IMG/VR virus record: IMGVR_UViG_3300027911_000025
Location: 1-43,973 of that record
Length of the DNA stretch: 43,973 bases
Strand: one strand, 5' to 3'
From: a virus
Shown here piece after piece: positions 18,738 through 30,755 of this stretch (the stretch's first letter is position 1; each line of letters starts with the position of its first letter). The notes under the pieces were generated by a model, which did not search any database, was not told where the DNA came from, and worked only from the letters and a program-made list of their open reading frames with translations. Position numbers and translations under genes: made by a program.

Positions 18738-21115
18738 CAATCCATCCTCCCCTCGTTCAAGGCCAGACCGGTGTAGTACTGCTGGCCGGAAACCTTCGTC
18801 ACCCCGAAACGCGATTTGATCTCTTTGCCAAACACCGTCATCGAGCGGATCCGCTCGTTGCGCCGCTCCGCCCACTGGCAGTAGGCGGCGTACAGGTAGG
18901 CCGGTTGTACTTTGGCCTTCCCGCTCACCGTGCAGCAGTCTTCTAAAAACTGCCCCCACACGTCGTTTTCCTCCGCGTATTCCTCCACCGCCTGGCGCAC
19001 CACATCCGGCTCCTGGATGCCAAACGCGAGGTACTGGGTAAGCCCCCGGAGCGCCCAGTTCAGGATCCCCGGCAGCTCCGCCACCAGTTTGTCCAGGAGA
19101 TGCAAATCCTTTTCCGCCTCGGGGATCCGAACCGCAAACGGCACCAGCTTAATCCGGCGCATGATGCCGTCGCCGGTGTCCGCGAGGTACAGCTTGGGGT
19201 TTGCAGCGATCCAGACTTTGTGGGTCTGGGGGAACTGGAAGGAGTTTTTATAAAGGAACCGGGCCCGGATCACGTCGGTGTCGGTGATCTGCTTGACCAC
19301 GTTTTCCGCGAGCGTTTCGTTTTTCCCGAGCTCGTTGATCACCGCCAGGCGCGCCCCCGCGAGGTGCGCCAATTCGTCGTTTACCATCCCGTTCGGGCGC
19401 ACCGTGATCACCGAGGACTGAAGATGCACCGCGTACGCCCCGAACAATTTCTGGAGCACGATCACAAGCGTTGACTTGCCGTTGGAGCCCGAACCCCACA
19501 AGTACCAGAGGCACTGCTCGGTGGTAAGCCCGGTCAAGGTGTAGCCCGCCGCCCGCTGCAGATATGCCCCGAGATCCTCCGGCAAAATCCGCTTCAGGAA
19601 CGCGTCCCAGGTGGGGCACACGGCTTTCGGGTCGTACGCGTAGGGCAGTACTTTGGTGCAAAGGTCCGTCCGGGCGTGATCCCGCAGCTTGCCGGTCGTA
19701 AGCTCAAGCGACCCGTTCGCCAGGTTCAGAAGCAGTGGATCCGCGTCGAGTGTCCCGGCCTCCACCGGGATCCCCGGCTCGGACTGGGCCAGGCGCATCG
19801 CGGCCACGATCCGGTTGTTCGATTCGGATTTGCTCGCCCAGGCAAGCGTTGCGGCCGCCTCCTTCTGGATCCCCAGCTTCCGGTCCGCGTCGTTTTCTCG
19901 GCGGGCCCGACGATACAGCGCATCGGCCTCGCACTGAATCTTGCGCACGGTGGCCTTCATACGCCGCTCGACCTCCCCGGATTCATCGAGCACCCAGGCG
20001 CAGGCGTTCCACACGTACCAGCCGCGCGTCGGGCAAAACCGCAGGTCCTCCCCATGACGCCGAATCAGGCGCTCTGCGTTCCCGTACTCGGTGAGGGGAA
20101 ACCGCTGCGTCTCCGGGGGCTCGGGCGCCTTCTTTGGGGAGACCCAGTCGAAGGCGGCGTCGGGCAGGCTGATGTCGGGCTGGCCGTAGCCCTCCCGCGC
20201 CAGGGCGGCCGCCGCCGCCTTGAAGTCGCCGCCATGCTCCAGGATCGTGTAAAGGGTGAACGCATCGTACCCGTGACCCGGCGCGAGCGGCGGGGCCGAG
20301 TCGGTGAAGCAGTAAAAGACGCCCGGCGCCACGTGTCCGATGGTGCCGGAGCGGATGTCGGAGGGTTTCCCCGGCCGGATCATATCGATCGCGTCGCCCC
20401 GGTCCGCACCGCGACGCCAGCCCCAGCGCAAAAGCAGCGCGGCGATATCTTCGTGGGTCTGGGACGCGTTGTAATCGTCGCCCGGACGGCCTTCACTTCG
20501 GTCACCGTCCGCGGTGACAGGAACGTCCGCCGTGCCGCTGGTCGGGGCGGCTTTGGGCGTGCCGGTCGCTTTTTCGGGGACCGGTGGCAGGGTCCGGGCG
20601 TCGAGCCACTCCCCGTCCTGGGACCGCGCGAACGCCTCCGCCAGGCGCTCGGGCGGGCAAGAGGGCGTGTAGTACATCCGGGACGGATCTTTGGCGGACC
20701 GGTCGTTATGATTCTTCAGGAGCCAGTAGGAGCACCGCTCCCAGACGCCGCGCCACTCCTCAGCCGGGATGGGAACCGCGAGCGGAAACACCACGCGCCA
20801 GCGCGGGGCCTCGGTGGTCGAGCCCCAGGAGGAATACAAAACGTAGGCCCGGTTCCCCCACAGACCCTCCAAAGCGCCCGGCGGCGTGCCATCGTCGATG
20901 TCGGCTACAAAGCAGCAGACCGCGACCAGGTTCCCTTTCTCCAGGTTCTGCTGCTCCCGGATCCGGCCCGGCCTCCATCCGCAGGGACACCAGAGCATCC
21001 CGTCCTTTTCCTGGCGCGGCCGGTGTCTGGTCAGATCGCGGGCTAAATCTTCCCAGTCGATTTCCCGGCGTCTTGGCTGAGTGTCGTGTCGATTCCCGAA
21101 CGTGGTAATAATCAC
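18737..21115 (-). CDS. Primase-helicase: AEP-like primase fused to D5/P4-type SF3 helicase
   Basis: I choose GTG 21115, which overlaps the stop of the resolvase gene as GTGA and has GGAAGG before it. Longer starts would sit deep in that gene. The product is 792 residues. Residues 65-160 look like an archaeo-eukaryotic-type primase, with the acidic motif VADIDDG (72-75) and SSWGSTTEAPRWRVV. Residues 540-660 are the P4/D5 helicase core: Walker A GSGSNGKST (541-549), Walker B-like VINELGK (about 592), sensor VWIAANP (about 635) and arginine-rich RRIKLVPF (about 653). It would unwind the phage origin and lay down primers. It is the central replication protein here. Confidence 0.88.
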   Translation of the reverse strand: MIITTFGNRHDTQPRRREIDWEDLARDLTRHRPRQEKDGMLWCPCGWRPGRIREQQNLEKGNLVAVCCFVADIDDGTPPGALEGLWGNRAYVLYSSWGSTTEAPRWRVVFPLAVPIPAEEWRGVWERCSYWLLKNHNDRSAKDPSRMYYTPSCPPERLAEAFARSQDGEWLDARTLPPVPEKATGTPKAAPTSGTADVPVTADGDRSEGRPGDDYNASQTHEDIAALLLRWGWRRGADRGDAIDMIRPGKPSDIRSGTIGHVAPGVFYCFTDSAPPLAPGHGYDAFTLYTILEHGGDFKAAAAALAREGYGQPDISLPDAAFDWVSPKKAPEPPETQRFPLTEYGNAERLIRRHGEDLRFCPTRGWYVWNACAWVLDESGEVERRMKATVRKIQCEADALYRRARRENDADRKLGIQKEAAATLAWASKSESNNRIVAAMRLAQSEPGIPVEAGTLDADPLLLNLANGSLELTTGKLRDHARTDLCTKVLPYAYDPKAVCPTWDAFLKRILPEDLGAYLQRAAGYTLTGLTTEQCLWYLWGSGSNGKSTLVIVLQKLFGAYAVHLQSSVITVRPNGMVNDELAHLAGARLAVINELGKNETLAENVVKQITDTDVIRARFLYKNSFQFPQTHKVWIAANPKLYLADTGDGIMRRIKLVPFAVRIPEAEKDLHLLDKLVAELPGILNWALRGLTQYLAFGIQEPDVVRQAVEEYAEENDVWGQFLEDCCTVSGKAKVQPAYLYAAYCQWAERRNERIRSMTVFGKEIKSRFGVTKVSGQQYYTGLALNEGRMD

Positions 21116-21699
21116 CGTTTGCGCGCCTTCCGGGGTTTGGGCAGTGACATCGCAAGTTGGCGTGCCGGAGGGAGAGGGAGCAGCTCGCCGGCGCGGACAC
21201 GGGACCAGGCGGCCTCCGCGACGGCCAGAGCGTCCGCCATATCGTGCTGGGTAGGCCCGAGGGAAAGCCGGAAGGTGCGGTTCGCCCACAACGTGGCGGC
21301 GATCTTCCCGTCCGCGCGGGAAAGCTTCGCGCAGCCCCAGGCTTTCTTCGCCTCGGCAGCACTGATCGGCACGAGCGGCAAAAGGGCAAGCGCGGGCATG
21401 GAAAGCAGCGTGCCGGTCAGCCAGTGGATCGCCTCGATGGTGTCCGAACCGCGATACGGCAGCTCATAGGCCACGTGGGTCGGTTCGTGGTCCCGCCCCT
21501 CCAGGAAGACGGAAAGACCGGTGCGGATGCGCCGGATCCGGTCCGCCCGCACGACCAGGGACAGGTCTGCATCCGATGCGTTCGGGATGATAGTGGTAAG
21601 GCCCAAGATCCGCCGGGCCGGGTATTCGACTAGCGCAACCCCGCAGCCGGTGCCGGGCTCGGACCCGGTCGAGGGGTCCAGTGCTAAAATGATGCTCAT
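21112..21699 (-). CDS. RuvC-like Holliday junction resolvase
   Basis: A 195-residue protein from ATG 21699 with CGGAGG before it. The RNase H-fold catalytic acids are in place: aspartate 8 in LALDPSTG, glutamate 79 in VAYELPYRG, and aspartates 153 and 156 in QHDMADALAVAEA. This spacing is that of RuvC-like nucleases, which cut four-way junctions and, in phages, branched DNA before packaging. The basic C-terminal tail (LPKPRKARKR) may bind DNA. It is followed within four bases by the primase-helicase gene and preceded directly by the structured RNA at 21713-21884. Confidence 0.85.
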   Translation of the reverse strand: MSIILALDPSTGSEPGTGCGVALVEYPARRILGLTTIIPNASDADLSLVVRADRIRRIRTGLSVFLEGRDHEPTHVAYELPYRGSDTIEAIHWLTGTLLSMPALALLPLVPISAAEAKKAWGCAKLSRADGKIAATLWANRTFRLSLGPTQHDMADALAVAEAAWSRVRAGELLPLPPARQLAMSLPKPRKARKR

Positions 21700-21712
21700 G
21701 TTTCCTCCGTAG

Positions 21713-21884
21713 GACTCTCGGCGGGAATCGAACCCGCTTGACTGCCTTTAGGCACTGTCGGCAACTTGGACATCTCTTTACGCAAGCCCGAAGCTTGCAC
21801 GTCGCCCGGTCCGTCTCAGTCGTAAGGCCCAGGTTTCCCTGTGTTCTTTCCGCCCATGCCTGCACACCATGTGCATCGAGAGTC
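21713..21884 (-). ncRNA. 172-nt structured RNA with tRNA-like termini (possible intron-bearing or chimeric tRNA)
   Basis: Read leftward, the 5' end GACTCTCG (21884-21877) pairs perfectly over 8 bp with CGAGAGTC (21720-21713), like an acceptor stem. Beside the 3' strand is a canonical T-arm, GCGGG-TTCGATT-CCCGC (21737-21721). Beside the 5' strand is a D-arm-like hairpin, GCAC-ATGGT-GTGC (21874-21862). In place of the anticodon arm are about 120 bases with a GNRA-capped CAGG-GAAA-CCTG hairpin (21841-21830) and a GCAAGC/GCTTGC hairpin (21798-21782). Between them and the T-arm lies a TGCC-TAAA-GGCA hairpin. GGCAT (21860-21856) can pair with GTGCC (21755-21751) as an anticodon-stem equivalent. The blocks CAGGGAAACCT and TAAAGAGA..GTCC resemble, from memory, parts of tRNA group I introns, but the insert is too short for a complete one. 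It fills the gap between two genes. Confidence 0.6.
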
Positions 21885-28841: not shown

Positions 28842-28927
28842 GATTCCTCCCCAGCCTCGTTTGCTTCCCTGCGTTAGGCGTGCTTTGAGAGCGTATTCCC
28901 ATTTCTAAGGTCTTTTTGGGCTACGTC

Positions 28928-28972
28928 CCTTTCAAGGAGGAAACCACCGGTTCAAGTCCGGTACGGGGTACC
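28928..28972 (+). other. attP core: 3' half of a tRNA-Glu(UUC) gene
   Basis: These 45 bases read as the 3' half of a tRNA. There is a seven-base anticodon loop CTTTCAA (anticodon TTC at 28931-28933), the 3' anticodon strand GAGGA, a T-arm ACCGG-TTCAAGT-CCGGT, the acceptor strand ACGGGGT and then ACC. No 5' half precedes it. A phage copy of a tRNA 3' half, 80 bases before an integrase gene, is the usual form of an attachment site: integration restores the host tRNA. The U at position 72 fits tRNA-Glu, which often has a G1-U72 pair. Confidence 0.85.
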
Positions 28973-29052: not shown

Positions 29053-30096
29053 GTGCCCAAATTGACTCTTAAGATTCCTCCCTCTCGTGTTTTGAAGCGA
29101 GCAAGGGTTTACCAGGCGCCGCTCCCGGCGCGTGTCGGTGTCGCCACGATTCGTCTGCCCGAACTTGGCCAGGCGTGGGATCTGGATGCGCGTGCTGCGG
29201 GACTTTCGGCCCGTTACCGAGACACCCAGCGCGAAGTCCTCCAGCGCCTCACGTGGTATCTTTCGCGCGAGCGGATTGGCACGCTTGACCAGGCGGCGCT
29301 GCGCCGGTTCTTCGCATACCTCCAGGGCGCGCACCTCGAGCCCGGCGGCCGCTGGGACGCCGGAGATACCCGCTCGCGCGCTCCGCTTTCGGATTCCACA
29401 TTGAAGGACTGGTACCGGCGCGTCCGGACGTTTCTCAACTGGCTGGTCGAGCAGCACGTGGTGGATACCTCACCGCTCGGTGGGGTCCGCCAGCCGATCC
29501 ACCGCACGTCCGGGCTCGGTTTCCACGTGTTCACCCAGGACGAGATCCGCCGGCTCCAGGCGGCCGCCCAGGGGCCGAGGGATGTGGCACTGGTGCTGCT
29601 CCTCCTGGACACGGGGCTCCGGGCCACCGAGGTGTGCGGGCTGGTCTGGGGGGATCTGGACCTGGTCGCGCGCCGGGCGAATGTCCGGGCGGAAAACGCG
29701 AAGGGCGGCCGGGTCCGGGCCGTGCACTGGTCGCGTCGCACCGGGTCGGCCTTGTGGCGCTGGATCCAGGCGCTCGGCGGCCAGGACCCGGACGCGCCGG
29801 TGTTCCCCTCAATCGGGAATAAGTCGCGCGGTCAGGCGTTGACGCGGGTGGGGCTCGGAAAGCTTTGCGCCCGGCTCGGGGCAGACGCAGCCGTTCCCCA
29901 TTGCCACCCGCACACCTTCCGCCACACGTTTGCCACGTTGTTCCTTTTGTCCGGCGGGCAGCAACGAACGCTGATGGAGCTGATGGGCCACACGTCCCTT
30001 TCGATGACGATGCGCTACGTTCGGTTCACGGGTGCGGACCTCGCCGCCCAGGCCCGCGTGCACTCCCCGGTGGAGTACGCCCACCGGCGCCGGTAA
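29053..30096 (+). CDS. int: Tyrosine recombinase integrase
   Basis: The frame starts at GTG 29053 (347 residues), but AAGGAA is only one or two bases before it. A TTG at 29062 has better spacing and may be the true start. An N-terminal SAM-like core-binding domain covers residues about 50-145. The catalytic residues of tyrosine recombinases are all present: arginine 190 (TGLRATEV), lysine 217 (NAKGGR), histidine 287 and arginine 290 (HTFRH), histidine 313 (LMGHTS) and tyrosine 322 (TMRYVRF). The length and HTFRH/GHTS style are close to XerC/D-like phage integrases. It would recombine the neighbouring attP with a host tRNA-Glu gene. Confidence 0.93.
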   Translation: MPKLTLKIPPSRVLKRARVYQAPLPARVGVATIRLPELGQAWDLDARAAGLSARYRDTQREVLQRLTWYLSRERIGTLDQAALRRFFAYLQGAHLEPGGRWDAGDTRSRAPLSDSTLKDWYRRVRTFLNWLVEQHVVDTSPLGGVRQPIHRTSGLGFHVFTQDEIRRLQAAAQGPRDVALVLLLLDTGLRATEVCGLVWGDLDLVARRANVRAENAKGGRVRAVHWSRRTGSALWRWIQALGGQDPDAPVFPSIGNKSRGQALTRVGLGKLCARLGADAAVPHCHPHTFRHTFATLFLLSGGQQRTLMELMGHTSLSMTMRYVRFTGADLAAQARVHSPVEYAHRRR

Positions 30097-30521: not shown

Positions 30522-30550
30522 TTGTTGACGGGGTGGGTTTCGTGTATAAT
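30522..30550 (+). promoter_or_regulatory. Promoter candidate for the rightward late region
   Basis: A perfect -10 box TATAAT lies at 30545-30550. A 17-base spacer gives TTGTTG (30522-30527) as -35. A better box TTGACG (30525-30530) is only 14 bases away. The site would drive the tRNA-like element and the terminase cluster. Confidence 0.55.
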
Positions 30551-30685
30551 CTGGGCGAAAGCGCGAACTCCTTTCGGATTCCTTCTTTGAGTCCCTGGCC
30601 CCCGGCGGGTTCCCCCGTTGACGTGGCTATCACCGGCCCCGTCGCCTCTGGTTTCCAGTGGTGCGGGCCAGGGATTGCTTTTCGC

Positions 30686-30755
30686 GCACCCGTAGCTCAG
30701 TGAGAGCGCCCGTCATTCCAGACGGGAGGGCGAGGCTCGATGCTTTCCGGGTGCT
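30686..30755 (+). tRNA. Degenerate tRNA-Gly(UCC)-like element
   Basis: The acceptor strands GCACCCG (30686-30692) and CGGGTGC (30748-30754) pair 7 of 7. TA and the D-stem GCTC/GAGC follow the normal tRNA text (TAGCTCAG), but the D-loop is shortened. The anticodon arm CCCGT/ACGGG has an eight-base loop CATTCCAG instead of seven. The T-arm reads CTCGATG with a poorly paired stem. A functional tRNA is therefore doubtful. It could be a decayed tRNA gene or a tRNA mimic. Confidence 0.5.

What the first reader, a model, noticed from the sequence alone, without database searches (positions are those of the whole stretch)
21713..21884. 172-nt RNA with tRNA acceptor, D-like and T arms around a large structured insert
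An 8-bp perfect terminal helix, a canonical T-arm and a D-arm-like hairpin form a tRNA-like body, while the anticodon arm is replaced by about 120 bases with several hairpins including GNRA and UUCG-type loops. It is too short for a tmRNA and has no tag frame. Parts look like the core of tRNA group I introns, but the insert is shorter than known self-splicing ones. It may be a compact intron-bearing tRNA, a tRNA-mimic RNA regulating the early operon, or a new class of phage RNA. It sits directly before the resolvase SD, so tRNA-type processing would also cut the early mRNA there.
Basis: partly seen in the sequence, partly recalled or inferred. Interest (0 to 1): 0.8.

Follow-up and report, generated by a model that had tools for sequence, protein, structure and literature searches.

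The report
Anticodon-less tRNA-like RNA in a phage
A temperate phage appears to carry a 172-base RNA whose two ends fold like the top half of a transfer RNA while its decoding arm is replaced by a different folded domain; it fits no catalogued RNA family, and no true relatives were found, so its job is still an inference.

Summary
Confirmed on the minus strand (21884→21713): an 8-bp perfect acceptor helix, a 6-bp D-position hairpin with loop UGG, a 101-nt domain in place of the anticodon arm, a 20-nt variable arm and a fully canonical T arm. It ends 4 nt before the Shine-Dalgarno of a RuvC-like resolvase. The acceptor and T stems have pairing probability near 1. In 1000 shuffles of the window, a T arm closed by a perfect 8-bp helix occurs 0.002 times per window; none occurs in 374 kb of other fetched DNA.

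ARAGORN finds no tRNA or tmRNA. Rfam has no match above threshold: no group I intron or tmRNA. The integrase's probable attP lies elsewhere. The phage is nearly an orphan: no relatives of its RuvC, UvrD or RNA, and mostly distant primase and terminase homologues, so covariation could not be tested. A 141-nt RNA in another phage's tRNA array has the same architecture, but its insert does not match beyond chance.

Best reading: a non-decoding tRNA mimic released from the early operon by tRNA-processing enzymes, leaving the resolvase mRNA starting at its SD. Intron-bearing tRNA, tmRNA and attP readings are disfavoured; a cis-acting 5'-UTR element remains open.

The parts
21713..21884 (-). whole tRNA-like RNA, 172 nt
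   Evidence: sequence; folding; shuffles
21877..21884 (-). acceptor helix, 5' strand GACUCUCG (8 of 8 pairs with 21713-21720)
   Evidence: pair probabilities 0.97-1.0
21713..21720 (-). acceptor helix, 3' strand CGAGAGUC; outermost G-C pair can be read as G-1:C73
21861..21875 (-). D-position hairpin UGCACA-UGG-UGUGCA; GG in the loop, no canonical D loop
21851..21860 (-). 5' strand of the long stem at the anticodon-arm position (GGCAUGGGCG)
   Evidence: pair probabilities mostly 0.91-0.97
21760..21772 (-). 3' strand of that stem (UGUCCA-AGU-UGCC), 3-nt AGU bulge
21830..21841 (-). hairpin CAGG-GAAA-CCUG with GNRA loop, inside the insert
   Evidence: pair probability 0.99
21781..21799 (-). hairpin with inner stem GCAAGC/GCUUGC and loop UUCGG, inside the insert
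   Evidence: pair probability 0.99-1.0 for the inner stem
21740..21759 (-). long variable arm, as in class II tRNAs
   Evidence: pair probability 0.85-0.99
21721..21737 (-). canonical T arm GCGGG-UUCGAUU-CCCGC
   Evidence: pair probability 0.99-1.0; same letters in a Microcystis phage T arm
21704..21708 (-). Shine-Dalgarno GGAGG of the resolvase, 4 nt after the end of the RNA
   Evidence: sequence
21112..21699 (-). RuvC-like Holliday junction resolvase gene directly downstream
   Evidence: PHROG 159, E 7e-11

Best explanation
The locus encodes a non-decoding tRNA-like RNA. Shown: a tRNA 'top half' (acceptor helix plus canonical T arm forming a 13-bp stack, with a small GG-loop hairpin in the D position) surrounds a structured domain that replaces the anticodon arm, and it sits between two genes of the minus-strand early operon, with its 3' end 4 nt before the resolvase SD. 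Inferred: the RNA is cut out of the operon transcript at its 5' end by RNase P and at its 3' end by RNase Z or equivalent 3' processing, receives CCA and accumulates as a stable RNA, while the resolvase-primase mRNA downstream begins just at its Shine-Dalgarno. Inferred more weakly: the inserted domain is the working part (binding a protein or RNA) and the tRNA shell gives processing and stability; because the end can be read as G-1:C73 on a 13-bp minihelix, the host HisRS could charge it.
For: Structure and pair probabilities. The T arm plus 8-bp closure is not a chance feature. No promoter-like or terminator-like site around it, consistent with release by processing rather than its own transcription. 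It is intergenic, and RuvC starts correctly at 21699 with an SD. Bacterial RNase P is known to process non-tRNA substrates including phage regulatory RNAs such as P1/P7 c4 RNA, mRNAs and tmRNA (PMC4919922). HisRS charges 13-bp minihelices carrying G-1:C73, and brome mosaic virus's tRNA-like end lacks a tyrosine anticodon yet is aminoacylated (PMC9976931). Another phage's tRNA array holds a 141-nt RNA with the same architecture: acceptor, UGGA-loop D hairpin, long stem with a 3'-side bulge, long variable arm, T arm. Further expanded tRNA-like RNAs (102-148 nt) occur in another metagenomic phage.
Against: No transcript data. No relatives of this RNA, so no covariation across true homologues; the two-sequence comparison with L018 has 13 two-sided changes but was fitted to the model, and the inserts do not match beyond chance (418 of 1000 shuffles as good). 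CCA is not encoded (the next bases are CUA). Ordinary tRNAs score as high as L018 with the single-sequence model.
Confidence: 0.5

Rival explanations
1. A cis-acting 5'-UTR regulator: the tRNA mimic stays in the resolvase mRNA and binds a tRNA-binding protein or ligand to switch resolvase/primase translation, in the manner of the thrS operator or the tRNA-shaped yjdF riboswitch.
For: It ends 4 nt from the resolvase SD; tRNA mimicry in 5'-UTRs is known (thrS operator, PMC9976931; yjdF, PMC9142559, abstract).
Against: The RNA is closed by its own terminal helix like a released unit, and in the predicted fold no part of it covers the SD, which lies outside the folded stretch; the SD region itself was not included in that fold.
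Confidence: 0.2
2. A phage tRNA gene relic: an ancestral class II tRNA whose anticodon arm was overwritten, now decaying and functionless.
For: The long variable arm and T arm are tRNA-like; a degenerate tRNA-like element is present elsewhere in this phage (30686-30754) and others in other phages.
Against: All 13 acceptor and T-stem pairs and the T loop are intact, while the D arm is already non-canonical; decay would not be expected to spare the top half.
Confidence: 0.15
3. A compact intron-bearing tRNA: the insert is spliced out and leaves a working tRNA.
For: The insert is at the anticodon-arm position; very relaxed ARAGORN settings can force a tRNA-Trp(CCA) with an 84-nt intron.
Against: ARAGORN at default intron settings finds nothing; Rfam finds no group I intron even at E<=10; no consistent anticodon results from deletion scanning; a 3- to 5-nt D loop is not that of a functional tRNA; a 2014 review states that all phage group I introns seen by then lie in protein-coding genes (PMC3984707).
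Confidence: 0.06
4. A phage attachment site: the tRNA 3' end is the attP core identical to a host tRNA.
For: The phage is temperate with a tyrosine integrase, and such phages often carry tRNA 3' ends.
Against: A better attP candidate, a tRNA 3' half, lies directly upstream of the integrase at 28910-28972, 7 kb away from this RNA; attP would not explain the matching 5' acceptor strand and D hairpin.
Confidence: 0.03
5. Chance or a protein-coding stretch.
For: A 32-codon frame runs through it; the folding z-score is only -2.2.
Against: Expected 0.002 per window for the T arm plus 8-bp closure, before adding the adjoining D hairpin and variable arm; it lies between genes.
Confidence: 0.04

Closest known systems
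Viral tRNA-like structures (plant virus TLS, especially brome mosaic virus TLS-Tyr)
   Same: tRNA-like acceptor and T domain on a virus RNA without a decoding anticodon; N-1:N73-type end recognisable by HisRS (PMC9976931)
   Different: those are 3' ends of RNA-virus genomes with a pseudoknotted acceptor (own knowledge); this is an intergenic RNA of a DNA phage with a true 5'/3' acceptor helix
Bacterial Y RNA (YrlA)
   Same: tRNA-like D, T and acceptor arms joined to another stem; 90-150 nt (PMC8394870)
   Different: in YrlA the 5' and 3' ends form the Ro-binding stem, not the acceptor; no GNCGAAG motif in the RNA; no Ro/TROVE protein among the phage proteins scanned
tmRNA
   Same: tRNA acceptor and T arm with the anticodon arm replaced by a long helix and an inserted domain
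   Different: half the length, no match to RF00023 or RF04321, no G3-U70 for AlaRS, no usual tag
Phage P1/P7 c4 RNA
   Same: short phage RNA that is an RNase P substrate (PMC4919922), released from the transcript of the gene that follows (own knowledge)
   Different: c4 is an antisense RNA of about 77 nt (own knowledge); no Rfam family matches here
L018:1493-1633, a 141-nt RNA in the tRNA array of a 161-kb metagenomic phage
   Same: same order of elements, tiny GG D-loop, long stem with a 3'-side bulge, long variable arm, T arm
   Different: no insert sequence similarity beyond chance; one acceptor mismatch; lies among 22 tRNAs

Membership tests
tRNA | 7-bp (or 8-bp) acceptor stacked on a 5-bp T stem with TTCRANN loop | tested here: met
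tRNA | 7-nt anticodon loop with U33 on a 5-bp stem | tested here: not met
   replaced by a 101-nt domain; deletion scan gives no consistent anticodon
tRNA | scores above ARAGORN / Rfam tRNA threshold | tested here: not met
   tRNA-Sec 14.8 bits against a cut-off of 47
tmRNA | match to RF00023/RF04321 or ARAGORN tmRNA | tested here: not met
tmRNA | G3-U70 pair for alanylation | tested here: not met
   pair 3-70 is U-A, or C-G if all 8 pairs are counted (sequence)
group I intron | P3-P8 core recognised by RF00028 | tested here: not met
   no hit at E<=10 with permissive filters
YrlA bacterial Y RNA | Ro-binding stem with GNCGAA-type motif (motif from own knowledge) | tested here: not met
   no GNCGAAG match within 21713-21884
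YrlA bacterial Y RNA | Ro60/Rsr partner in the same genome | tested here: inconclusive
   none found among the phage proteins scanned; the host is unknown
tRNA-like RNA processed by RNase P / RNase Z | mature ends at the acceptor helix, CCA tail | not testable with these tools
   needs RNA
attP site in a tRNA 3' end | adjacent to the integrase | tested here: not met
   candidate attP at 28910-28972, next to the integrase

The most novel reading that the evidence does not exclude
A recurrent but uncatalogued kind of phage RNA: a tRNA top half (acceptor, mini D hairpin, T arm) used as a processing and stability shell around interchangeable structured domains in place of the anticodon arm, acting as operon punctuation and as a trans-acting, possibly aminoacylated, RNA.
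Probability: 0.2. Interest if true: 0.8.

Novelty: new variant of a known kind. Interest (0 to 1): 0.5.

Why it matters
If real and processed, it would be a DNA-phage counterpart of the anticodon-less viral tRNA-like structures, and a case where a phage borrows tRNA processing both to release a structured RNA and to set the 5' end of a replication mRNA. It would also mean that tRNA finders, which demand an anticodon arm, are missing a set of phage RNAs.

Tried and rejected
Relatives by neighbouring proteins: RuvC and primase in IMG/VR and GTDB, UvrD and terminase in IMG/VR; only distant homologues, plus one 100% terminase fragment in which the RNA model finds nothing. Relatives by RNA: blastn to phages and plasmids gave T arms and short chance stretches only; three IMG/VR pattern scans gave ordinary tRNAs, coding stretches, a permuted tmRNA (L043) and the architecture match L018. 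The shared AAAGAA/ACUGAGAC motif between the window and L018 first looked like homology but failed a shuffle test. A covariance model from this one sequence scores ordinary tRNAs as high as L018, so its hits are not evidence of kinship. A host search centred on a plasmid locus was not accepted by the tool. Group I intron, tmRNA, Y RNA and attP readings were tested and dropped.

Full report
What is there. The window is a whole 43,973-base virus record of a temperate phage: P22-like portal, large terminase and tyrosine integrase. On its minus strand runs an operon with sigma-like, UvrD-like, small, RuvC-like and D5-primase genes. Between a 95-aa ORF and the RuvC-like gene, at 21884→21713, lies the reported element. 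Read on the minus strand it folds as: 8-bp perfect terminal helix; one-base linker; hairpin UGCACA-UGG-UGUGCA in the D position; a 9-10-bp stem with an AGU bulge on its 3' strand in place of the anticodon stem, holding about 80 nt with a GAAA hairpin and a UUCGG hairpin; a 20-nt variable arm; and the T arm GCGGG-UUCGAUU-CCCGC. The terminal helix and T-stem pairs are near certain in the ensemble; the small inner stem 57-60/78-81 is weak (0.60-0.65).

Is it more than chance? Folding energy alone is modest (z = -2.2), and the opposite strand folds well too. The geometry is the telling part. In 1000 dinucleotide shuffles of the window, a T arm followed directly by a strand that pairs perfectly over 8 bp with a segment upstream (within about 260 nt) occurs 0.002 times per window, and 0.012 times for 7 bp. 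Among 54 other fetched loci (374 kb) there is no perfect 8-bp case; 10 of the 12 looser 7-bp closures at 95-260 nt lie in loci that carry tRNA or tmRNA genes.

What it is not. ARAGORN finds no tRNA or tmRNA. Rfam has no match at threshold, and only tRNA-Sec and a tymovirus tRNA-like element at chance level with permissive settings, so no group I intron, tmRNA or other catalogued RNA. Deletion scanning of the insert gives many arbitrary anticodons rather than one. The Ala identity pair of tmRNA is absent. The Y-RNA motif is absent and no Ro protein was found among the proteins scanned. The attP reading is unlikely, since a tRNA 3' half sits directly upstream of the integrase at 28910-28972.

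Relatives. None of the RNA was found. RuvC and UvrD relatives were absent, primase gave only distant homologues in IMG/VR (26% and one 52% short stretch) and none in GTDB, and terminase gave one identical fragment plus 32% homologues. The best look-alike is a 141-nt RNA in the tRNA array of a 161-kb phage (L018:1493-1633, minus): acceptor, UGGA-loop D hairpin abutting it, long stem with a 3'-side GU bulge, long variable arm, CAA linker, T arm. A model-fitted comparison of the two gives 13 pairs changed on both sides and 96% paired cells, against 27-46% when partners are slid, but the alignment is fitted to the structure and the inserts are no more alike than shuffles (418 of 1000). I therefore treat it as the same architecture, not as a proven homologue. 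Another phage in the fetched set carries tRNA-like RNAs of 102-148 nt with expansions in the D or variable region (L013), and a Microcystis phage has a short one with a reduced anticodon loop, so expanded or decoding-less tRNA-like RNAs may be commoner in phages than annotation shows. The loci were fetched by T-arm patterns, so this is not an unbiased survey.

How it may work. Shown: tRNA-like ends; position 4 nt before the resolvase SD; no promoter-like or terminator-like sites nearby. From literature: RNase P processes phage regulatory RNAs and mRNAs (PMC4919922); HisRS charges 13-bp G-1:C73 minihelices and some viral tRNA-like ends lack an anticodon (PMC9976931). Inferred: tRNA enzymes release the RNA and fix the 5' end of the resolvase-primase mRNA; the inserted domain does the specific work. 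I put this at 0.5, with a cis-acting 5'-UTR mimic next (0.2) and a decayed tRNA after that (0.15).

Limits. There are no RNA data, no true homologues, and the host is unknown. The covariance model R1 comes from one sequence and does not separate relatives from ordinary tRNAs.

Noticed in passing
window 30558-30690 (+): Very strongly folded RNA region (z = -5.2, 0 of 200 shuffles as good): a 12-bp closing helix around three hairpins, inside a GCGCGAA/UUCGCGC helix, just downstream of a TATAAT (30546-30551) and upstream of the late genes. No phage match at E<=0.1.
   Followed up: partly
window 30686-30754 (+): Second degenerate tRNA-like element directly after it: 7-bp acceptor GCACCCG/CGGGTGC, tRNA D stem, anticodon-type hairpin with UUCC in its loop, poor T arm; missed by ARAGORN.
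   Followed up: partly
window 28910-28972 (+): 3' half of a tRNA (21.9 bits to RF00005) just upstream of the tyrosine integrase 29053-30096: likely attP core and a handle on the host.
   Followed up: partly
L013 1110-3660 (-): Metagenomic phage with a run of aberrant tRNA genes carrying insertions in the D loop (102 nt in all) or variable region (148 nt), some with odd anticodons.
   Followed up: partly
L037 1461-1530 (Microcystis phage Mwe-JY26): Unannotated tRNA-like RNA with a 3-nt D loop and 5-nt anticodon loop upstream of the annotated tRNA array.
   Followed up: partly
L049 6365-6383, 6640-6658; L053 10130: Free-standing T-arm-like hairpins AAGCGGG-TTCGATC-CCCGCTT after stop codons, repeated between genes in two phage contigs.
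   Followed up: no
L014 3588-3741 (+), same in L019 and L025: About 151-nt tRNA-like RNA (GGAGAG/CTCTCC closure, variable arm, T arm, CCACC-like end) in phage contigs; no Rfam family at threshold.
   Followed up: partly
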